This document shows positions 11,544 to 44,548 of a stretch of 52,615 nucleotides of DNA, piece by piece. The stretch's first letter is position 1. Each line of letters starts with the position of its first letter. Under the pieces are notes generated by a model. It did no database searches and was not told the origin of the DNA. It saw nothing but the letters and a program-made list of their open reading frames with translations. The stretch lies in IMG/VR virus record IMGVR_UViG_3300032117_000039, positions 1 through 52,615 of that record. The stretch is one strand, 5' to 3'. The DNA is from a virus. The translations under genes and the position numbers were made by a program.

Positions 11544-11790
11544 ACCCCTGCACGTGATCATCACCCGGGAGATGTTCAGCACCTTTTGCACGCTGACCAC
11601 TCCGGTGGACGGTTTCAGCGAAGAGCTTGAAATTGAGGAGGTTCGTGAGTGGTTCAAGCAGCGCGGCGCGAACATGGACGCCATCGAGGAAGCCTTGACC
11701 ATGGCCTGGAATTTTCTGAAGGCAGAGGTGCTAATTGAGAGGCCGCGACTGCCCAAAGCGCCGGTGCTGCCTTATTCTCCCAACATTTGA
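11521..11790 (+). CDS. Hypothetical protein (89 aa)
   Basis: Unrecognised small acidic protein with a helical core (EELEIEEVREWFKQRG, then DAIEEALTMAWNFLKAE) and a Pro-rich C-terminus. It overlaps the upstream gene by 23 bp and is followed by a 104-bp gap before the protease gene. Last gene of the small-head-protein cluster. Confidence 0.6.
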   Translation: MQIPPSPEPLHVIITREMFSTFCTLTTPVDGFSEELEIEEVREWFKQRGANMDAIEEALTMAWNFLKAEVLIERPRLPKAPVLPYSPNI

Positions 11791-11860
11791 TGTAGTTTCA
11801 ATCGTCTTAGCGGCGTTTTCGCGTTTCGTTTACTTTCGGCGGCGGTTCCTCGTGGTTATA

Positions 11861-13611: not shown

Positions 13612-15081
13612 ATGGTTATTCTAACTGAAAGTGGAAGACCGGTATTGGCATCTGATGGCGGGCACATTTCCCGCTTCATGGATGTCCTTGAGTGGGGCTA
13701 CCGCCTGGCGGAAACGCCGGTCGGGGTCAGCCGCGACAAAAATCCCCGAGGTCTTTGGGAAGCCAAAGGCTGGAAGGAATTCGTCGACCACATGCCGGAG
13801 CACAAGAAACCGCTGGCGGCGATCATGCTCGAAAACTGCCGCAGCCGTTTTGGCCGTCTGGACGAAGTCACTCGTACGACCTCCCTCGGGACGTTCGACA
13901 AGTGGATTTTCCCCATCATCGCCAACATGTCGGAAAACGACGTGATTGATCAACTGGTGGCCCTCCAGCCCATGGCTGGCCCGGTCAGCCAGATCGTGTA
14001 CATGGACATCGTCACCGGTCGGCGCAAAGGCCGCACCCCGGCAGGCGCACCCGTCTGGCGCGCGCTGCAAGGCGCGGTGGACCGCGACGATGACGCTGAT
14101 GAAGTCGTCCAGGACGAAACCGGCACCACGAATGGTTCCGGCGTGTTCGTGCTGGAATGGACTCCGATCCGCACCGGGACGATTTCCGGTTCCTTCGGTG
14201 ACGGCACCCAGTTCGCGGACGACGGCAACGGCCAGATCGTCAACGTGGCCACGGGCGCGTATATCGGCGTGGTGACCTATCAAGGTTCCGGCGCGGGTAC
14301 GATCACCGTCAGCGCGGAAACGGCTGCCAGCTACACTGTGAGCTACGCGTTCAACTCGGAAGGCAACCTGGCGATCCAGGACTACGAGATGAAGCTCTCC
14401 AGCACCCCCGTCACCGCCAAGGTGATGAAGCTGAAGACGCTCTGGTCCGAGGAAGCCGACCAGAACCTCCAGGCCATGTACAACATCAAGGCGGAGAGCG
14501 TCCTGCTCAACGCGTTGACCAACGCCCTGCAATACCAGAAGCACCGCCAGGTCATCTTTGACTTGCGGGCCAAGGCGGATGCCGGGTTCGTGGTCTGGGA
14601 CGCTATCGCTCCGGCGAACGTCAATTACCAGACGCACAAGTTCTCCATCATCGACGCGTTCGAGACTGCCTCGAACTTCATCTTCGGTTCCACGAACATG
14701 GTCGCCGGTAACTGGATGCTCTTGGGCCTCCAAGCCGCTACCGTGGTGGCCACGCTGCCGCAGTTCGTGCCGAAGAACAACCGGGTCCAGATGCAGGGCA
14801 TCACGTACCTGGGCGACATCGGCAACAAGAAAGTGTTCGCCGATCCCCACTATCCGGTGAACGAGTTCCTGGTCGGCCACAAGGGCGATCAGTTCCTCAC
14901 GACCGGCTACGTGTTGGCCGAGTACCAGAAGCTGTACACCACCCCTGACGTGGTGCTGCCTGACTTCATCCATCAACGGGGTTTTGCCACGAGCTTCGCG
15001 CGCAAAATGATCAACTCGAAGATGTTTGCACGCGGCCTCGTGCAGAATAGTCCAAGCGCTTTTGGCCAGACTATCGGTTAA
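13612..15081 (+). CDS. Major capsid protein (T4 gp23-like, HK97 fold)
   Basis: 489 aa. The diagnostic segment FDKWIFPIIANMSENDVIDQ, continuing through LVALQPMAGPVSQIVYMD (about residues 102-138), matches gp23-type capsid proteins, where LIANEIVGVQPM-like text precedes an A-domain strand. An inserted Gly/Thr-rich beta domain lies at about 185-250. The C-terminal part (DPHYPVNEFLVGHKGDQFLTTGYVLAEYQ) is also typical. Candidate LxE processing sites near the N-terminus are LTE, VLE and LAE. An A-rich leader precedes the start and a strong terminator follows, as expected for a highly expressed gene. Confidence 0.93.
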   Translation: MVILTESGRPVLASDGGHISRFMDVLEWGYRLAETPVGVSRDKNPRGLWEAKGWKEFVDHMPEHKKPLAAIMLENCRSRFGRLDEVTRTTSLGTFDKWIFPIIANMSENDVIDQLVALQPMAGPVSQIVYMDIVTGRRKGRTPAGAPVWRALQGAVDRDDDADEVVQDETGTTNGSGVFVLEWTPIRTGTISGSFGDGTQFADDGNGQIVNVATGAYIGVVTYQGSGAGTITVSAETAASYTVSYAFNSEGNLAIQDYEMKLSSTPVTAKVMKLKTLWSEEADQNLQAMYNIKAESVLLNALTNALQYQKHRQVIFDLRAKADAGFVVWDAIAPANVNYQTHKFSIIDAFETASNFIFGSTNMVAGNWMLLGLQAATVVATLPQFVPKNNRVQMQGITYLGDIGNKKVFADPHYPVNEFLVGHKGDQFLTTGYVLAEYQKLYTTPDVVLPDFIHQRGFATSFARKMINSKMFARGLVQNSPSAFGQTIG

Positions 15082-17425: not shown

Positions 17426-17489
17426 ATGCTGACGTTTAGTCATTTTTCAGCTGGCCACGGCTCGTCTGTGTGTGTTCTATACTGGCGAC

Positions 17490-18353
17490 ATGAAATGCCT
17501 ATTACGGTACCCTGGCGGAAAAAGTCGAATGCTCGGCGATCTACAGCCGTACCTGGTCGGAATGCTTAAAAATGAAACTGAGTACGGCGAACCTTTCGTC
17601 GGTGGTGGTTCGGTGGCGTTGCACGTGGCGCGCCATTTTCCAAAAATCAAGTTAAGGCTGAACGACAAAGACCCGCTCATAGCCGGGTTATGGCGCGTAA
17701 TCTGCGGACCCTCTGCCGGTGTCAATCAGCTAATTAAACTGATTGATGTGGTGCCAACATTAAGCCTGTGGCGGTCCACCCGCAGCAGTGAACCCAAAAC
17801 AGACTTGAATCGGGCTTTTAAGGCGATATTCATGAACCGAACCTCGTGGAACGGCATCGTACACGACTCACGTCCGATAGGCGGCCTGGAGCAGAAAAGT
17901 AAGTGGCCAATCGGTTGTCGCTATAACGTAGGCGCTTTAAGCGCCCTTTTAGTAGCCTACCATGAACTTCTGTCCGGACGCACTGTTGTGACGGAACTGG
18001 ACGCTGTTGAATTTGTACGTCGATTCAGTTGTCCCTGCTTTATTGATCCGCCGTACCTTATGGACGGCAAAAATAAACTTTACGGCGTTAGCATGACTGA
18101 AAGCGAGCACAGGAATTTTGCAAAAGCCTTGCGCACGCTGAGAAAGTGGGTACTGACCTACGATAATAAAGATAGGGTTGCCTGCGACTTGTACTGGCGC
18201 GTAGACAAAAAGCTCATAGATACGAGATACTCGATGGACACAGCCCATCGCGCCCACCGCGAAGTAGTGGGAGTGGCTGAGTGGAAAAAAGCGAGCGAAA
18301 TTTGCGCACACAAAGGTTTTTCTCTTGTTCTTAACGGCAGCGCTGAACTATAG
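17490..18353 (+). CDS. D12-class (Dam-type) adenine-N6 DNA methyltransferase
   Basis: Probable GATC-type adenine methylase. RYPGGK (6-11) and FVGGGS (about 36-41) form the SAM-binding motif pair, and the catalytic motif IV DPPY is at 186-189. The 287-aa length is typical. The start at 17490 puts RYPGGK at the usual distance from the N-terminus; an in-frame ATG at 17472 adds six residues. The base composition is clearly AT-richer than the flanking head and tail genes and continues into the next gene, suggesting joint acquisition. Confidence 0.9.
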   Translation: MKCLLRYPGGKSRMLGDLQPYLVGMLKNETEYGEPFVGGGSVALHVARHFPKIKLRLNDKDPLIAGLWRVICGPSAGVNQLIKLIDVVPTLSLWRSTRSSEPKTDLNRAFKAIFMNRTSWNGIVHDSRPIGGLEQKSKWPIGCRYNVGALSALLVAYHELLSGRTVVTELDAVEFVRRFSCPCFIDPPYLMDGKNKLYGVSMTESEHRNFAKALRTLRKWVLTYDNKDRVACDLYWRVDKKLIDTRYSMDTAHRAHREVVGVAEWKKASEICAHKGFSLVLNGSAEL

Positions 18354-18407
18354 TCGGCGTGTAACCGGACTTGCTGGAATTAACCGGTGGGACTGGGAAA
18401 GGAAAAC

Positions 18408-20441
18408 ATGAAATATATGCAAATGGTGGGCGTCTACGCTCACATTAACCGAGCCTACGAATCTTCAGAGGCTTATCAATGGTCAAGAGAAGCCGCCGTA
18501 AACGCCCTCCAAGCTGGTGCGACTGATGTGCGGTTCGACGTGGAGTGGCAAGCAGTACGCAGCCAACAAGTGTACCGACGGCTTGTGGCCGACAACGGAT
18601 CAGGCATGAGTGCGCAGCAAATGCCAGCTTTTTTGAATAAATTTGGCGGTTCAGGCCGCACTATCGGAGCCATTACAGGAAACTACGGTGTAGGCTTTAA
18701 GAGCAGCGTACTGCCGTGGAACGGTTACGGTGTTGTGGTCATTTCCGTGGTTACGCTGAACGGGCGGATAGAAACCAATATGATGTGGCTTCAGAGGGAA
18801 GAGAAAGACGACGGTACCTTGGACTACGGCGCGCGGGAGCTGTTGTCTGATTATTTCGATGGGCGAGAAACTCAAGAAAGCGACGATTTTATCGGCGACT
18901 GGGTCTCCGGTTTTGGAAGAAACGAGGATGCTACAACAGTGATGCCATTGACACTGTTAAACGATTGCGGATACGTGCCTGAATTAGACGGTATTAACTG
19001 GCTTAAAGTAGTCCCTAAGTTTGTGAAAGAGGCTGGGCACGGCACGGTTATCGTGCTACTCGGGCAGCGTGGAAAAGAACACACCATACTTGGTGACTTT
19101 AAGAGGAACGAACACGACACCAAGTACGGTCTTTGCCGCTACCTGAACACCCGTTTTTATTCTATTCCCGACAACTTCAAAATTACGGTTGCTTCCGTGG
19201 GAACAGAAGAGGCAAGAAAAAACTGGAATCAACCGAGCAGCTGGCCAACGGCACCTGGCACTGGAGGCATAAGCAGCAGGACAGTCATCGGCATGAAAAA
19301 GTGTCTGGAGTCTTACGTTGTCGCCGCTACTAAAGAGGGCAAGGAGGCTAAGCGCGGTCAGACGCTGCTTAAAGCTGGCGCAGAAGTTCCTGTTAGTGTA
19401 GACACCTTGCTGCTGCCTGAGCTGGAAAAAAGCAGCGGCACCGTTGGTGGTGACAATCACTATGCCGCCGGTAATTATCCTTCACTTCCGCTCATCGCTA
19501 GCATCTGGAAATGCCATCCCGACTTAGACTTAGTCGAAACTTTTAACGTGCGCATGCTGTCAGAGGGAAAAACTGCGCTTTTTGACTGGATAAACTTAAT
19601 GGATGTACGGCGACGTTTGGCTTTAATCCTAGAGCCGAAGGACGACGGTGACATCTGTGTTTTTGCGGATCAGTCCAGGCGCACTCTACTATACCAAAGT
19701 AAGACTAAAGGTGGCGCGCCGCTGCCGGAGCTTGAGTGGGCGGCAGCCTACAGGGTAAACCGGCCTGACTTCATATCAAAAGCGGTGGACGCCTACTTTG
19801 AAGGTTTAAGCGTAGATCGACCTGAAACGGATGCGAGCATCGTGGAGCACCTTAAGCAGTATTTTCCGTTCATGGCGCATACTGTCGTAGAAACTCGACG
19901 CGCGGAAAAGAAACAGCCTGCTTACGAAAGATCGGATGAATCGGACGGCGACACCGACAGTGGTAATCGCGGCGGTTACCGCTTGCCGGGACATTTGGGC
20001 GGTCGCGGCAGGGATTTTCAAAATAGTCGAGGCTTGATAACCGTTAATAAGGGTACAGTAGAAGGAGGATTTCCGGTAGAATGGAATACAGATCAAAAAG
20101 AGCCTAGAGGCATTGTAGACATGACACATCCTCTAGTCAAAGATGCGTGGGACATGTGCGAACTCAAGCTAAGAGCCGACGGTGTGGATGACGGCGCTGA
20201 AATGACTAGCTACCGACGAGCTTTTGAGAGCCAGGTAATCGGGCACGTGAGCTTGGCTATGACGCACATTTACGCCTACCTTAAGGCCAACAAAATGAAA
20301 AACTCGGATGAATTGACAAAGCCCAGCGCGCTACTGTCTATCGTAGCTGGCATAAGGCATTTGCACCAAGCCTCGCAAGGGCCGTTCGGCACGATTAAAG
20401 GTGGAAGAGCGAAAGTCAAAACCGCTTGCCCGGTCAACTAG
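18408..20441 (+). CDS. GHKL-family (Hsp90/MutL-type) ATPase of unknown role
   Basis: 677 aa. The Bergerat ATP-binding fold is shown by E28 and N32 (REAAVNAL), DNGSG (62-66) and GNYGVGFKS (91-99). It lacks the conserved Hsp90 middle and C-terminal domains and the MutL linker; the remaining about 560 residues are not recognised. The start at 18408 has a good Shine-Dalgarno-like AAAGGAAAA, unlike most genes here; a GTG at 18387 is the alternative. AT-rich like the methylase gene 54 bp upstream, with which it probably forms one unit. A role in defence, superinfection control or DNA maintenance is conceivable but unproven. Confidence 0.75.
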   Translation: MKYMQMVGVYAHINRAYESSEAYQWSREAAVNALQAGATDVRFDVEWQAVRSQQVYRRLVADNGSGMSAQQMPAFLNKFGGSGRTIGAITGNYGVGFKSSVLPWNGYGVVVISVVTLNGRIETNMMWLQREEKDDGTLDYGARELLSDYFDGRETQESDDFIGDWVSGFGRNEDATTVMPLTLLNDCGYVPELDGINWLKVVPKFVKEAGHGTVIVLLGQRGKEHTILGDFKRNEHDTKYGLCRYLNTRFYSIPDNFKITVASVGTEEARKNWNQPSSWPTAPGTGGISSRTVIGMKKCLESYVVAATKEGKEAKRGQTLLKAGAEVPVSVDTLLLPELEKSSGTVGGDNHYAAGNYPSLPLIASIWKCHPDLDLVETFNVRMLSEGKTALFDWINLMDVRRRLALILEPKDDGDICVFADQSRRTLLYQSKTKGGAPLPELEWAAAYRVNRPDFISKAVDAYFEGLSVDRPETDASIVEHLKQYFPFMAHTVVETRRAEKKQPAYERSDESDGDTDSGNRGGYRLPGHLGGRGRDFQNSRGLITVNKGTVEGGFPVEWNTDQKEPRGIVDMTHPLVKDAWDMCELKLRADGVDDGAEMTSYRRAFESQVIGHVSLAMTHIYAYLKANKMKNSDELTKPSALLSIVAGIRHLHQASQGPFGTIKGGRAKVKTACPVN

Positions 20442-20448
20442 CAGAGCT

Positions 20449-21378
20449 ATGAAGCTATTGATTTGCGGCGGTCTCTACGGCTCCGAGGGCAAGGGCTGCG
20501 TGGCCGATTACTTCGCCCGGCAGACCCAAGCCCTGGTCGCCTTCGCCGAGTCCGGCCCCAACTCCGGCCACACCAACTCAGCCTGGTGTACCCACTGCCT
20601 GCCCTCCTGCGCCATGCGGGCCAACGCCACGCTGATCGGGCCGGACGCGGTGATCGACCTGGACCAGCTGGCCCGCGAGCTGGCGCAGCTGCCAAAGAAT
20701 GCTCGCGTCTACGTCCACGAGAACGCGGCCATCACCCTGCCTGACGACCGCGTCGCGGAGCAAGAGCTGGGCTTGGGGCGGAGCATCTCCAGCACCTGTA
20801 CCGGCAGCGGGTACGCCCGGTACAAAAAGTATACGCTAAGGCAGCCCAATGCCGTGGCGGGCTACTACCCAATCCCAGGCGTAACCGTCGTGAAGTCGGC
20901 GGAGTGGCTGGACCTGGTGGAGGAGCTGTCCAGTTTCGACTGGATCGTCGAGGGCAGCCAGGGAGCGCTGCTGGACACCAACTTTGGCGTGTACCCGTAC
21001 GTGACCAGCCGGTCAACGCTGCCGCTGTCCATTATCGGGCGCAACGGCTTGTCCTGCTTCAACTGGACCATCTGCTCGGTGTACCGGACGCTGCCAATCC
21101 GCACGGGCGGCCCCAGCGGCCCCTGTGGCGGCAAGGAGCTGACCTGGGTTGAGCTGAAGCTGGAGCCGGAGATCGCCTCCACGACCAAGCGCGTGCGCCG
21201 GGTATTTGAGTGGTCGGAGAGCGACTTCAAGCTCAGCCTGCGGCTGACGCGTCCGGATGTCGTGGCCATCACGCACCTGGACTACGCGACTGACGCGTTC
21301 GTGGCCGACAACATCAGGTCCCATTTCCACGGCACCGTGATCGGCAGCCGCCAGCCTGCAAAGTTCACGTACCTTTGA
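20449..21378 (+). CDS. purZ: PurZ-type adenylosuccinate synthetase homologue
   Basis: 309 aa, of the adenylosuccinate synthetase fold. The P-loop reads GGLYGSEGKG (7-16): S12 replaces the catalytic Asp of PurA (E. coli D13, in GDEGKG), a change known from phage PurZ, which joins aspartate to dGMP for 2-aminoadenine synthesis. H41 is kept (NSGHT). VEGSQGALLDTNFGVYPYVT (about 164-183) matches the PurA VEGAQG...YPYVTSS block, and the RTGGPSGPCGG and TTKRVRR segments match the aspartate and base loops. PurZ is shorter than PurA (about 430 aa), as here. The alternative is a PurA-like enzyme with another substrate. The gene returns to GC-rich composition. Confidence 0.75.
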   Translation: MKLLICGGLYGSEGKGCVADYFARQTQALVAFAESGPNSGHTNSAWCTHCLPSCAMRANATLIGPDAVIDLDQLARELAQLPKNARVYVHENAAITLPDDRVAEQELGLGRSISSTCTGSGYARYKKYTLRQPNAVAGYYPIPGVTVVKSAEWLDLVEELSSFDWIVEGSQGALLDTNFGVYPYVTSRSTLPLSIIGRNGLSCFNWTICSVYRTLPIRTGGPSGPCGGKELTWVELKLEPEIASTTKRVRRVFEWSESDFKLSLRLTRPDVVAITHLDYATDAFVADNIRSHFHGTVIGSRQPAKFTYL

Positions 21379-21607
21379 CCGGCTGCTTGGCCAGGAATTC
21401 CTTCGCCGATTCGGTAAACGATTTGCCGCACCAGGGGCAGTAGTGCATCGGCCACATGGTGATGTGCGTGCCGTTGGCGGCGGCCAGTTCGCACGCCAGG
21501 TTGAGGGTGTGGACGCCCTCCACCATTTTGTCGCAGCACTCCGCGTCTTTGGTCGTGACGTCGGGCGCGCCCGGGATGTCAATGGAAACGAGTCGATTCG
21601 TGATCAT
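21365..21607 (-). CDS. Small protein with CPWCG motif (80 aa)
   Basis: Unrecognised small protein, convergent with and overlapping the 3' end of the purZ-like gene by 14 bp. A helix (DAECCDKMVEGVHTLNLACE) is followed by HYCPWCGKSF, a compact zinc-ribbon half. It would need partner residues or dimerisation to bind zinc. The strand choice is supported by the coherent cysteine motif. Confidence 0.6.
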   Translation of the reverse strand: MITNRLVSIDIPGAPDVTTKDAECCDKMVEGVHTLNLACELAAANGTHITMWPMHYCPWCGKSFTESAKEFLAKQPVKGT

Positions 21608-41616: not shown

Positions 41617-41970
41617 ATGATTGCAACCGTCACAGACAGCCAATTCGTCGGCGAGACTTTGTCTACGCTGTTCAGCGTCATCCAGCAGGGTCCGGCCAGC
41701 TTGATGGTGACGATGAAGAATAGCGGCGTCAACACGCTGAATTATGATTTTCAGGAATTCAACGGCACCTCCTGGGCGGACCTGGGCGCGCCGGGCAGCC
41801 TGCTCAACAACACGCTGATGGCCAACCAGGTGATCCAGCTGATCGTGACCTCCACGTATCCGCAGGTTCAGCTGGTAGGCAACGCCTCCGGCGGCGCGCT
41901 GTTGGAGTTCACGGTGGTCCGGTACTACAACCGGGCCAGCGGCGGAGCGCTGCCGCTCATCGCCGTCTAG
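41617..41970 (+). CDS. Probable virion beta-sandwich protein (117 aa)
   Basis: All-beta appearance: LMVTMKNSGVNTLNYDFQEF, then NQVIQLIVTSTYPQVQLVGN and LLEFTVVRYYN. It has the same strand order as the 32845 gene product, so the two are likely paralogous decoration or attachment domains. It overlaps the end of the convergent exonuclease gene by 14 bp. Confidence 0.55.
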   Translation: MIATVTDSQFVGETLSTLFSVIQQGPASLMVTMKNSGVNTLNYDFQEFNGTSWADLGAPGSLLNNTLMANQVIQLIVTSTYPQVQLVGNASGGALLEFTVVRYYNRASGGALPLIAV

Positions 41971-42790
41971 TCTGGTACTCCTCGTAGACGCGGCTGTACA
42001 ACAGGCCGATGTTGGGGATACCGAGCGATTTGGCTTCCGCCACGGAAGCCAGCTGCAAACGTCCCGGATCAGGTACGTCCGGGACGTTGGTTTTTAAGCG
42101 GGTCAGCTCCAGGCACGCCAGGAACTGCTCCTGGCACTCCGGCGGCATTTGGCTCAGCAGCGCCGCCTTGGCCTCCTCGAACGTCATGTCTGGATTTACC
42201 TTACGGAACAGCTCGCGGCACTTTTTAGGACCCCAGCCATGAACGCCCTTGATGTTGTCCACCGGGTCGCCGGTGATGGCCTGAACCAGCGCCACCTGGC
42301 TGGCCCGGGGCACGCCCCATTTTCGCCGGATGTAGTCGGGCGAGAGGATGGTCTTGGTGTTCAGGCAATAGTAATGGATGTTCCCTCGCTGAAGCTGTTG
42401 CAGGTCCTTGTCACCCGAGACCACGTAAACTTCGTCCGTTTTGGCGGCGCGTACTGCGGCGGTTGCCACGACACTGTCTGCCTCGTACTGGTCGTGTTCA
42501 AAGTTGACAGTGCCAAAGAGGAACGCCAGAACATCTTTAACGGCTTCCTTGGTGTCATGATATACCTTTGGTTTGGTTTCTCGGCCCTTGTTGCTGGAAA
42601 TGTTTTTGGGGTCCCAGCCGAACAGGGTCCGGTCTACGTACACCCCAAGTTTGTCGATGTCGGGATTCAGCAGGATCAGCAGTGAGCGCACCATCAGACT
42701 GACCGCGTCCAGCGGTTCCCCGCCGCTGCGCTCGGCGGCGTACCAGGACCGGGCAAAAATACTATTTGCGTCAAAGCAGGCTGTTATCAT
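41957..42790 (-). CDS. 5'-3' exonuclease / flap endonuclease (PolI-N / T4 RNase H-like)
   Basis: 277 aa. Metal-binding acidic residues are seen in the N-terminal FDANS, in YEADSVVATA, and in VSGDKDLQQL. The helix-hairpin-helix region reads ITGDPVDNIKGVHGWGPKK. This set defines the 5' nuclease family, which removes RNA primers and flaps during phage replication. It is convergent with the structural gene at 41617 and divergent from the HNH endonuclease 14 bp away. Confidence 0.9.
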   Translation of the reverse strand: MITACFDANSIFARSWYAAERSGGEPLDAVSLMVRSLLILLNPDIDKLGVYVDRTLFGWDPKNISSNKGRETKPKVYHDTKEAVKDVLAFLFGTVNFEHDQYEADSVVATAAVRAAKTDEVYVVSGDKDLQQLQRGNIHYYCLNTKTILSPDYIRRKWGVPRASQVALVQAITGDPVDNIKGVHGWGPKKCRELFRKVNPDMTFEEAKAALLSQMPPECQEQFLACLELTRLKTNVPDVPDPGRLQLASVAEAKSLGIPNIGLLYSRVYEEYQTRRR

Positions 42791-43608: not shown

Positions 43609-43788
43609 TCATCGCAATTTCGAGTTTCTCTCGTTTTCCTGCTCTACTTTTTCGTTGCGCCAGTGGACCATCTGGCGCAGGATGTCGTCGGGCACGCGGC
43701 TTAGCTCCAGCGTCAGGCCCTTGCCATCCCAGGCCAGTTCAAACAGGGTTCTCCAGCGGTCTTGGCGGCTAATATAAGCCGCCTCAAC
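43609..43788 (-). CDS. Frameshift extension ORF behind the gp26-like gene (59 codons, no start codon)
   Basis: Reading VEAAYISRQDRWRTLFELAW, then GKGLTLELSRVPDDILRQMV and a charged end SKLR, this frame has no plausible start codon upstream of residue 41. It is compact, helical and protein-like. It lies in +1 frame to the end of the 43784-44548 gene. It can be reached by +1 slippage at TTT TTT CGT TGA, giving a 312-aa fusion. Small proteins of similar look follow gp26-like genes in other contractile-tailed phages as I recall them, which supports a real function in tail assembly. Confidence 0.65.
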   Translation of the reverse strand, partial: VEAAYISRQDRWRTLFELAWDGKGLTLELSRVPDDILRQMVHWRNEKVEQENERNSKLR

Positions 43789-43795
43789 GAAAAAA
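43784..43795 (-). promoter_or_regulatory. Putative +1 programmed frameshift site TTT TTT CGT TGA
   Basis: On the minus strand the zero frame reads TTT TTT CGT TGA. A tRNA-Phe on the second TTT can re-pair on TTC after moving +1, so that GTT GAG follows and the stop is bypassed. UUU CGU is the same core as the +1 site of influenza PA-X. The stop in the next codon but one and the slow CGT context would favour slippage. Confidence 0.55.
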
Positions 43796-44548
43796 CTCCT
43801 GACCCAGGTCCAGCACGTGGTCGAAGGTCTTCAGGCACTCGTCGCACTTGTGTGGCACGGCGGTGTTCAGATGCGGCGTGATGCGGCGGCCCTCCTTTTC
43901 GAGAAATTTGGAATCCGCTGGCGACAGCGCCCGAAACCATTGGATCAGCTCTTCCAGCGCGTCGGGTCGGGTGTCGTTGATGGTGACGACCCGCATCAGG
44001 GTGCGCAGCAGTGTGTCAGGCACCCGGGCGCGCTCCACGGTGGGTCGGCCCACGATGGCGCGCTCGTCCTTGACCAACAGCGGGCGCACCTTGACGACGT
44101 CCTGGACGTCCGGCAGGGTGATGACATCGAAACCGGGATAATCCGGCTCCTTGACCCCCACCGGCTCCAGCTCGTCAGGAATGGCGATGGTTTCGTCCTT
44201 CTTGGCCCCGCAGTGCGGACACACGGAGGTGTAGCGAATATGGTCGTTGGCCAGGCGCGCCCGGGACACCAGCAGGATCAGGTTGATCTCGTCGGCGACA
44301 AAATCGTCCAGCCTGCCGCCGTTGAGGTTGCAGCAGCGCTCGAACAGGCTAAAGATCAGCTCCTCCTTGGTCAGCTTGCGGGCGTTCTCCACGAACCAGT
44401 CGTCAACTTCATTGTCCCAGGGGTAGACGGTCAATTTGCCGCCGGGCCAGGCCGTGGGGCTGGTGTAGCCGCGCGAGAGCAGGGTGATTTCCCGCTTGTA
44501 CGCGTCTCGGCGCGGGACCAGTGATTTCAGGTTGGTGCGAATAGCCAT
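43784..44548 (-). CDS. gp26-like baseplate hub / tail assembly protein
   Basis: 254 aa. It combines an N-terminal domain (AYKREITLLSRGYTSPTAWP), a zinc site (SVCPHCGAK near 111-117 plus HKCDEC near 233-238) and VKVRPLLVKDERAIVGR (about 151-167), which resembles the FRPFLVKEEKALL block of the T4 gp26 / baseplate protein family. The C-terminal LDLGQEFF resembles the FF ending of related phage proteins. Its stop overlaps a +1-frame ORF and is preceded by a slippery TTT TTT C. It lies 21 bp after the spike gene on the same strand. Confidence 0.72.
   Translation of the reverse strand: MAIRTNLKSLVPRRDAYKREITLLSRGYTSPTAWPGGKLTVYPWDNEVDDWFVENARKLTKEELIFSLFERCCNLNGGRLDDFVADEINLILLVSRARLANDHIRYTSVCPHCGAKKDETIAIPDELEPVGVKEPDYPGFDVITLPDVQDVVKVRPLLVKDERAIVGRPTVERARVPDTLLRTLMRVVTINDTRPDALEELIQWFRALSPADSKFLEKEGRRITPHLNTAVPHKCDECLKTFDHVLDLGQEFFR

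What the first reader, a model, noticed from the sequence alone, without database searches (positions are those of the whole stretch)
20449..21378. PurZ-type synthetase: possible 2-aminoadenine (Z) metabolism
The PurA-fold protein has GSEGKG instead of GDEGKG. The catalytic Asp of PurA is replaced by Ser, the change known from phage PurZ, while H41 and the VEGxQG...YPYVT block are kept and the length is short as in PurZ. PurZ makes the precursor of 2-aminoadenine that replaces A in some phage genomes. DatZ, MazZ and the Z-type polymerase were not seen here, so full replacement is not shown. An adenine methylase 3 kb away makes the base chemistry more intriguing.
Basis: partly seen in the sequence, partly recalled or inferred. 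Interest (0 to 1): 0.85.

Follow-up and report, generated by a model that had tools for sequence, protein, structure and literature searches.

The report
Phage PurZ without its usual partners
A large virus of bacteria carries a divergent version of the enzyme that other phages use to replace the DNA letter A with a stronger-pairing letter Z, but none of the helper enzymes that normally make the replacement complete could be found, so it may make DNA that mixes A and Z.

Summary
The 309-aa ORF at 20449-21378 (+) is real and PurZ-like. Its P-loop reads GSEGKG (Ser12 for PurA's catalytic Asp). NCBIfam ranks PurZ first (154.6 bits, below the 300 cut-off); the AF2 model fits phiVC8/S-2L PurZ best (Z 37.5/36.8; archaeal PurA 34.1). 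With short archaeal PurA included, the tree puts it among phage PurZ (100/99) and rejects archaeal PurA (p 0.005); without them the tests were undecided. Ser alone is not diagnostic: cellular Ser-type paralogues exist.

The window lies in a 129-kb contig of a T4-like-capsid phage. The only close homologue found (45%) is in a 230-kb sister contig. In neither was DatZ, MazZ, DutZ, DUF5664 or DUF550 detected; both may be incomplete. Their UDG-PolA groups with SPO1-like phages, not DpoZ (quick tree). Thr219 (Val in 109 of 110 compared rows) and a PurA-like TxLD donor motif mark a distinct subtype, probably GTP-driven.

Most likely it makes succino-2-amino-dAMP from dGMP, feeding dZTP into DNA without dATP removal, so an A/Z mixture is expected. 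Enzyme class is well supported; substrate, donor and Z in DNA are inferred. New variant of a known kind.

The parts
20449..21378 (+). purZ-like gene, 309 aa, PurZ-family succino-2-amino-deoxyadenylate synthetase (predicted)
20479..20496 (+). P-loop G11-S-E-G-K-G16; Ser12 replaces the Asp of PurA
20569..20571 (+). codon of His41 (aligned with S-2L H52; its catalytic role in PurA is recalled)
20947..20964 (+). VEGSQG, with pocket Gln171 (S-2L Q190)
20992..21012 (+). YPYVTSR, pocket residues (S-2L Y203, C204, T205 = Tyr184, Val185, Thr186)
21094..21111 (+). PIRTGG; Thr219 replaces the residue next to the sugar C2' (S-2L V241), Val in 109 and Ile in 1 of 110 other rows
   Evidence: PMC8342488 section 8
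21175..21201 (+). ASTTKRVRR, region of the aspartate-binding loop (S-2L T273-T276 read TTVT; here ASTT)
21271..21285 (+). THLDY; Asp278 where S-2L has Gln308 and phiVC8 Asn297, as in PurA (TKLD) and PurZ0 (TMLD): suggests a guanine nucleotide donor
   Evidence: PMC8342488 passages
18387..20441 (+). 684-aa GHKL-type ATPase gene (PF13589, E 9.7e-5, below its cut-off), 7 nt upstream of purZ, probably one transcription unit
17472..18353 (+). DNA methyltransferase gene, phrog_56 (adenine type by eye)
21365..21607 (-). 80-aa ORF overlapping the 3' end of purZ, no PHROGs family
13612..15081 (+). gp23-type major capsid protein (context: T4-like large phage)

Best explanation
The gene encodes a divergent PurZ (succino-2-amino-2'-deoxyadenylate synthetase). 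It most likely activates the 6-oxygen of dGMP with GTP (or dGTP) and joins aspartate to give succino-2-amino-dAMP. Host enzymes would finish dZTP, as reported for phiVC8 in vitro (which ones, such as adenylosuccinate lyase and guanylate kinase, is recalled). The phage's UDG-PolA polymerase, which is not in a known Z-selective clade, would incorporate Z opposite T in competition with dATP. With no dATP-removing enzyme found, the expected result is DNA holding both A and Z, perhaps enough to blunt some restriction enzymes. Shown here: family membership, conserved pocket residues, predicted fold, genome context, and no match to known partners in the held sequence. Inferred: substrate, donor, downstream steps, polymerase behaviour and mixed base content.
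For: Profiles: PurZ NF038379 154.6 bits against 110.8 (NF003295) and 80.1 (TIGR00184) for PurA models; phrog_1211; best solved-structure sequence hits are phiVC8 and S-2L PurZ. Tree with archaeal PurA: clade of 22 phage PurZ plus the 2 targets, 100/99; grouping with archaeal PurA rejected, AU p 0.005. Model pLDDT 87.1, pTM 0.86; VIA Z 37.5 and 36.8 to ligand-bound phiVC8 and S-2L PurZ, 34.4 to PurZ0, 34.1 to P. horikoshii PurA. Pocket residues kept: Tyr10, Gly11, Ser12, Asn38, Ser115, Thr116, Gln171, Tyr184, Thr186, Arg218, and His41. Asp278 in a TxLD motif. PurZ is present in two related phages at 45% identity, other shared proteins being about 25-68% identical. DatZ models gave only chance-level scores in G002 and G003 and the genome search none, while the same search rang in G007. 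PolA groups with SPO1-like phages.
Against: The NCBIfam PurZ score is about half the curated cut-off. The branch is long. Without short archaeal PurA, support for phage PurZ is 86/95, and neither the split target+PurA (p 0.43) nor target+cellular Ser-type+PurZ0 (p 0.41) is rejected; the first split also fits a place basal to all Ser-type proteins. In the tree with archaeal PurA, grouping with kinase-fused cellular proteins is not rejected (p 0.12) and with PurZ0 only marginally (p 0.057). Ligand-free phiVC8 PurZ entries score below archaeal PurA 5K7X in VIA (30.1-31.3 against 34.1). Thr219, the ASTT aspartate loop and the C-terminus (pLDDT under 50 for 294-309; the column of S-2L G335-P336 is a gap) are unlike tested PurZ. 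MAFFT places Leu130 in the column of S-2L R146; Arg131 lies one residue on. Nothing measures Z in this DNA, and partners could lie outside the held sequence.
Confidence: 0.58

Rival explanations
1. Full Z genome: the phage replaces all A by Z, using a dATP-removing enzyme of an unrecognised family (functional convergence, as DutZ and DUF5664 do in PurZ0 phages) and an UDG-PolA polymerase that has independently become Z-selective.
For: Alternative dATP hydrolases are known in PurZ0 phages (PMC12884076, sections 24-26 read). Viral relatives L045, L094 and L068 also showed no DatZ in the DNA held; L094 and L068 carry a dUTPase-family domain and a kinase-like domain next to purZ, L045 a kinase-like gene. 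Their PolA fall near the target's.
Against: No dUTPase, DUF5664, DUF550 or DatZ match in G002 or G003 (the two DUF families rang in no control genome of the genome search). Related PolA occurs in SPO1-like phages.
Confidence: 0.2
2. A Ser-type synthetase with another product: it accepts a ribonucleotide (GMP) or serves a free-nucleotide role (antimetabolite, anti-defence, signalling) rather than genome substitution.
For: Thr219 replaces a Val that lies next to C2' of the sugar in S-2L PurZ (PMC8342488) and is Val in 55 of 55 phage and 20 of 20 PurA rows. Cellular Ser-type paralogues occur in recurrent gene neighbourhoods that look like conflict or nucleotide modules, and grouping with the kinase-fused ones is not rejected.
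Against: The best trees put the target with phage PurZ, not with the cellular groups, and most dGMP-pocket residues are kept.
Confidence: 0.13
3. A PurA-like enzyme that raises AMP supply from IMP during infection.
For: PurA fold; PurA-like TxLD donor motif; long branch; AU undecided without archaeal PurA.
Against: Asp replaced by Ser; PurA profiles score lower; archaeal PurA grouping rejected.
Confidence: 0.05
4. A decaying or repurposed remnant without catalytic activity.
For: Shorter than the 10 reference PurZ; weak C-terminus.
Against: Open frame with core motifs, and a 45% identical homologue with the same motifs in a second phage.
Confidence: 0.04

Closest known systems
PurZ of phages phiVC8 (6FM1) and S-2L (7ODX)
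   Same: Fold, Ser in the P-loop, most dGMP-pocket residues, His41; same clade in the tree with archaeal PurA.
   Different: 27-30% identical in the structure alignments; Thr219 for Val; TxLD instead of NFxN/Q, so a guanine donor is suggested; different aspartate loop and C-terminus; no DatZ or MazZ found; PolA outside the DpoZ clades.
PurZ0 of actinophages (7VF6; Pumancara and Goodman used here)
   Same: Ser P-loop with Glu (GSE), TxLD-type donor motif; no DatZ annotated near purZ in the two records viewed.
   Different: Separate clade, though grouping is only marginally disfavoured (p 0.057); PurZ0 phages carry dutZ (PMC12884076), not found here.
Archaeal short PurA (P. horikoshii 5K7X; NF003295)
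   Same: Fold and approximate length.
   Different: Asp in the P-loop in 21 of 21 sequences extracted from 30 loci; lower profile score; grouping rejected.
Cellular Ser-type PurA paralogues (kinase-fused and solo)
   Same: GSEGKG P-loop in 74 of 80 loci; Asp at the donor-base position in 32 of 35 rows.
   Different: Val (34) or Ile (1) at the 241 position in 35 rows; other clades in the best trees; recurrent chromosomal neighbourhoods.

Membership tests
PurZ (phage succino-2-amino-deoxyadenylate synthetase) | Ser in place of the PurA Asp in the P-loop | tested here: met
   GSEGKG, Ser12; not specific on its own
PurZ (phage succino-2-amino-deoxyadenylate synthetase) | Phylogenetic place within phage PurZ | tested here: met
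   100/99 with archaeal PurA included; 86/95 without them, AU then undecided; grouping with cellular fused type not rejected
PurZ (phage succino-2-amino-deoxyadenylate synthetase) | NCBIfam NF038379 curated cut-off (300 bits) | tested here: not met
   154.6 bits; still the best-scoring family
PurZ (phage succino-2-amino-deoxyadenylate synthetase) | dGMP pocket and PurZ fold | tested here: met
   VIA Z 37.5 to 6FM1; most pocket residues kept, Thr219 differs
PurZ (phage succino-2-amino-deoxyadenylate synthetase) | Makes succino-2-amino-dAMP from dGMP and Asp | not testable with these tools
   needs an enzyme assay
Z-cluster (purZ with mazZ and datZ; complete A-to-Z replacement) | datZ near purZ | tested here: not met
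   no match above chance in G002 or G003, against 49 of 78 viral PurZ loci with one; records may be incomplete
Z-cluster (purZ with mazZ and datZ; complete A-to-Z replacement) | MazZ / dGTP pyrophosphatase | tested here: inconclusive
   no MazZ match; a weak PRA-PH-like protein in G002 (PF01503 18 bits, cut-off 21.3), none in G003
Z-cluster (purZ with mazZ and datZ; complete A-to-Z replacement) | DpoZ-type DNA polymerase | tested here: not met
   PolA groups with SPO1-like phages, outside both DpoZ clades (quick tree with long branches)
PurZ0 system (purZ0 with dutZ, dmtZ, DUF5664) | PurZ0 clade and dutZ gene | tested here: not met
   different clade (AU p 0.057); no dUTPase-family match in G002 or G003
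PurA (adenylosuccinate synthetase) | Catalytic Asp and place among PurA | tested here: not met
   Ser12; archaeal PurA grouping rejected; undecided without archaeal PurA

The most novel reading that the evidence does not exclude
A third kind of phage PurZ system: a GTP-driven PurZ in large T4-like-capsid phages that works without any dATP-removing enzyme and with a polymerase that is not Z-selective, so the virion DNA is a deliberate A/Z mixture (possibly also methylated) rather than a fully substituted Z genome.
Probability: 0.35. Interest if true: 0.8.

Novelty: new variant of a known kind. Interest (0 to 1): 0.6.

Why it matters
The surveyed PurZ phages mostly carry DatZ, and all 98 PurZ0 genomes in that survey carry dutZ (PMC12884076). 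A PurZ kept in two large phages with none of the known dATP-removing enzymes would mean either that Z is made and used without removing A, or that another partner awaits discovery. Both are directly testable by LC-MS of phage DNA and one enzyme assay. The residue differences (Thr219, Asp278) offer a natural variant with which to separate sugar and donor selectivity in PurZ.

Tried and rejected
PurA membership: rejected on Ser12, profile ranking and the AU test with archaeal PurA. Two earlier AU tests without archaeal PurA rejected nothing (p 0.43 for target+PurA, p 0.41 for target+cellular Ser-type+PurZ0).

Ser as a diagnostic of Z metabolism: dropped, because Ser-type paralogues are common in cellular genomes, in 19 of 20 genomes checked beside a full-length Asp-type PurA.

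Absence of DatZ as a unique trait: dropped; 29 of 78 viral PurZ loci showed none in the DNA held, some with short flanks.

DatZ, MazZ, DutZ, DUF5664, DUF550 and NDT-like partners: searched with local models in G002 and in G002 plus G003, and with the genome search; only chance-level scores in these two. PF18909 and PF04447 rang in no control genome of the genome search, so those two nulls are weak alone, although the models do match reference phage proteins.

More members of this subtype: two degenerate DNA motif scans of viral-contig hit only the three contigs already known; a scan with the pair alignment added three distant PurZ (28-33%) only.

A tRNA with anticodon CTA in G002 suggested recoding; TAG is still the stop in 8 of 41 G002 genes with a G003 homologue, so it was not pursued.

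Rows dropped before trees: of 77 viral loci, 54 remained after clustering at 65% and the first 45 were used; of 80 cellular loci, 35 remained at 60%. Later trees used 58 and 53 rows that I chose, with 7 of 21 archaeal PurA. Pfam was run on 51 of 73 G002 ORFs of 110 aa or more ending before 76,100, plus eight single G002 ORFs, some of them the same, and on 70 of 172 chosen G003 ORFs of 110-420 aa; for G003, 25 of 45 matched families were shown.

Full report
What was checked. The ORF at 20449-21378 (+) is present and open, 309 aa, with Ser12 in GSEGKG. Pfam calls it Adenylsucc_synt (91.7 bits). NCBIfam ranks PurZ NF038379 first (154.6 bits, cut-off 300), then the adenylosuccinate synthetase models NF003295 (110.8; 'archaeal' is recalled, and fits its hits) and TIGR00184 (80.1). 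PHROGs gives phrog_1211, printed as '2-aminooxy adenylosuccinate synthetase'. The best solved structures by sequence are PurZ of phiVC8 and S-2L. tblastn finds 198 annotated phage records, all under 60% identical, the 60 listed at 28.7-33.0%.

Where the window comes from. It is an IMG/VR virus record. Two other contigs carry the identical protein. The whole window matches the 129,045-bp contig IMGVR_UViG_3300031759_000004 (G002) at 100%. The capsid protein matches gp23-type capsids, the 25 listed at 22.9-29.6% identity. G002 encodes an UDG-like/PolA fusion, two helicases, an NAD ligase and a weak PRA-PH-like protein (UDG is read by eye, PolA by Pfam). The nearest relative, 45% identical, is in a 230,253-bp contig (G003) that shares replication and structural proteins with G002. 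In G003 purZ lies elsewhere, divergent from a cpYpsA gene. G003 also has thymidylate synthase, thymidylate kinase, a D12 adenine methylase and a tubulin-like protein.

Family and tree. Ten reference PurZ, 45 viral loci, 35 cellular Ser-type proteins, 20 PurA and the two targets gave a quick tree. In it the targets form a 100-supported pair inside a 98-supported set of 50 rows: 40 viral, 7 reference PurZ, the pair, and one protein from a bacterial MAG. A careful 58-row tree gave 86/95, and AU tests on it rejected neither target+PurA (p 0.43) nor target+cellular Ser-type+PurZ0 (p 0.41). The first split is also the one expected if the pair is basal to all Ser-type proteins. After adding short archaeal PurA (Asp P-loop in all 21 extracted), the pair lies within phage PurZ at 100/99 and within its core at 97/85. 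Holding it with archaeal PurA is rejected (p 0.005); with kinase-fused cellular proteins it is not (p 0.12), and with PurZ0 it is marginal (p 0.057). The branch is long, so its exact place is open.

Active site. The AF2 model (27-row alignment) has pLDDT 87.1 and pTM 0.86, with residues 294-309 under 50. Foldseek and VIA rank ligand-bound phiVC8 and S-2L PurZ first, then PurZ0, then archaeal PurA; ligand-free phiVC8 entries come lower. I mapped the S-2L pocket (residues from PMC8342488, passages and section 8 seen). Tyr10, Gly11, Ser12, Asn38, Ser115, Thr116, Gln171, Tyr184, Thr186, Arg218 and His41 are kept. Ser39, Ser114 and Val185 differ from S-2L but occur in other reference PurZ. Leu130 falls in the R146 column, with Arg131 next to it. 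Val241, by the sugar C2', is Thr in the window and in G003, against Val in 55 of 55 phage rows, 34 of 35 cellular rows (Ile in 1) and 20 of 20 PurA rows. The aspartate loop reads ASTT for TTVT; G003 keeps TTVT. The donor-base residue (S-2L Gln308, phiVC8 Asn297) is Asp278 in a TxLD motif, as in PurA and PurZ0; 11 of 55 phage rows have Asp there. From this I infer a guanine nucleotide donor; it is not tested. PMC12884076 prints 'ATP and GTP, respectively' for PurZ0 and PurZ (section 24), the reverse of what these motifs and the S-2L data suggest, so the donor prediction rests on the motif alone.

Partners. A DatZ model from 7 phages, iterated on the loci, finds DatZ in 49 of 78 viral PurZ loci, 46 of them within 1 kb of purZ (open-frame edges). 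In G002 and G003 it finds only chance-level scores. The genome search finds none in G002, G003, G001, G004, G005 or G006, and does find one in G007. No dUTPase, DUF5664, DUF550 or MazZ match was found in G002 or G003; PF18909 and PF04447 rang in no control genome, though both models match reference phage proteins. By P-loop, DatZ is present in 39 of 50 GST loci, 8 of 8 GSC loci and 2 of 19 GSE loci (GSE as here), with one locus unclassified (GST against GSE, Fisher p 4e-7, near-copies not removed). In a quick PolA tree with several long branches, the target polymerases group with SPO1-like phages (92). They lie outside the phiVC8-type DpoZ clade (49 rows, 100) and the actinophage DpoZ group.

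How it probably works. The protein should make succino-2-amino-dAMP from dGMP and Asp with GTP. Host enzymes should finish dZTP (V. cholerae enzymes do so for phiVC8 in vitro, PMC8342488 passage). A polymerase without Z selectivity and an untouched dATP pool would then give DNA with both A and Z. Full substitution is reported to hinder some restriction enzymes (PMC12884076 passage); whether a mixture does is inferred. The enzyme class is well supported; substrate, donor, polymerase behaviour and base content are inferred.

Compared with what is known. The 2026 survey (PMC12884076; abstract, passages and sections 24-26 seen) describes PurZ phages, mostly with DatZ plus MazZ-2 or DUF550, and PurZ0 phages with DutZ, often DmtZ, and DUF5664. 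The case here fits neither set as far as the held sequence shows. A phage with a tail sheath that has PurZ and an annotated dATP triphosphohydrolase is already public (Burkholderia phage Bm1), so the novelty is the T4-like background, the missing partners and the residue changes, not the tail type. In paper searches I saw no listed title or abstract start reporting PurZ in T4-like phages, or the cellular Ser-type neighbourhoods noted below. Only open-licence PMC papers were searched, and I opened two.

Noticed in passing
L125-L204 (80 loci of genome contigs): Ser-type (mostly GSEGKG) PurA paralogues are common in bacterial and some archaeal genome records; 19 of 20 genomes checked also have a full-length Asp-type PurA.
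   Followed up: partly
L160:7428-9056, L204:8251-8919, L139:6002-7408; 49 loci classed by a motif: One cellular type is fused to an N-terminal nucleotide-kinase-like domain (long ORFs seen in 8 loci, Pfam run on one). Homologues of a DUF7002 protein lie nearby in 42 of 49 loci and of an IrrE-type peptidase (weak macro/DarG-like C-terminus in the example) in 28 of 49: it looks like a conflict or defence operon built on a PurZ-like enzyme.
   Followed up: partly
L201:6034-10812; 31 loci: The other cellular type neighbours homologues of a weakly dCTP-deaminase-like protein (23 of 31 loci; DCD 23.6 bits, below cut-off) and of an RNaseH/kinase-like protein (18 of 31). Kinase, PurZ-like and dUTPase-fold genes together could be a cellular Z-nucleotide pathway.
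   Followed up: partly
L094:9974-12210, L068:9977-12101, L045:10001-12007: These viral purZ genes without a detected datZ sit beside a nucleotide-kinase-like gene, in two of three cases with or fused to a dUTPase-family domain, and their polymerases fall near the target's UDG-PolA.
   Followed up: partly
G003 182191-183396 and 178350-178916 (L120): The sister phage encodes a tubulin/FtsZ-like protein and a cpYpsA (SLOG) protein divergent from purZ.
   Followed up: no
G002 11715-11791 (L007, - strand): A tRNA with anticodon CTA (called Pyl by ARAGORN), although TAG still serves as stop in 8 of 41 genes with a G003 homologue.
   Followed up: partly
window 41957-42790 (-) and 43784-44548 (-): Minus-strand genes inside a mostly plus-strand block (5'-exonuclease-like and baseplate-like by eye only; no family search run).
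   Followed up: no
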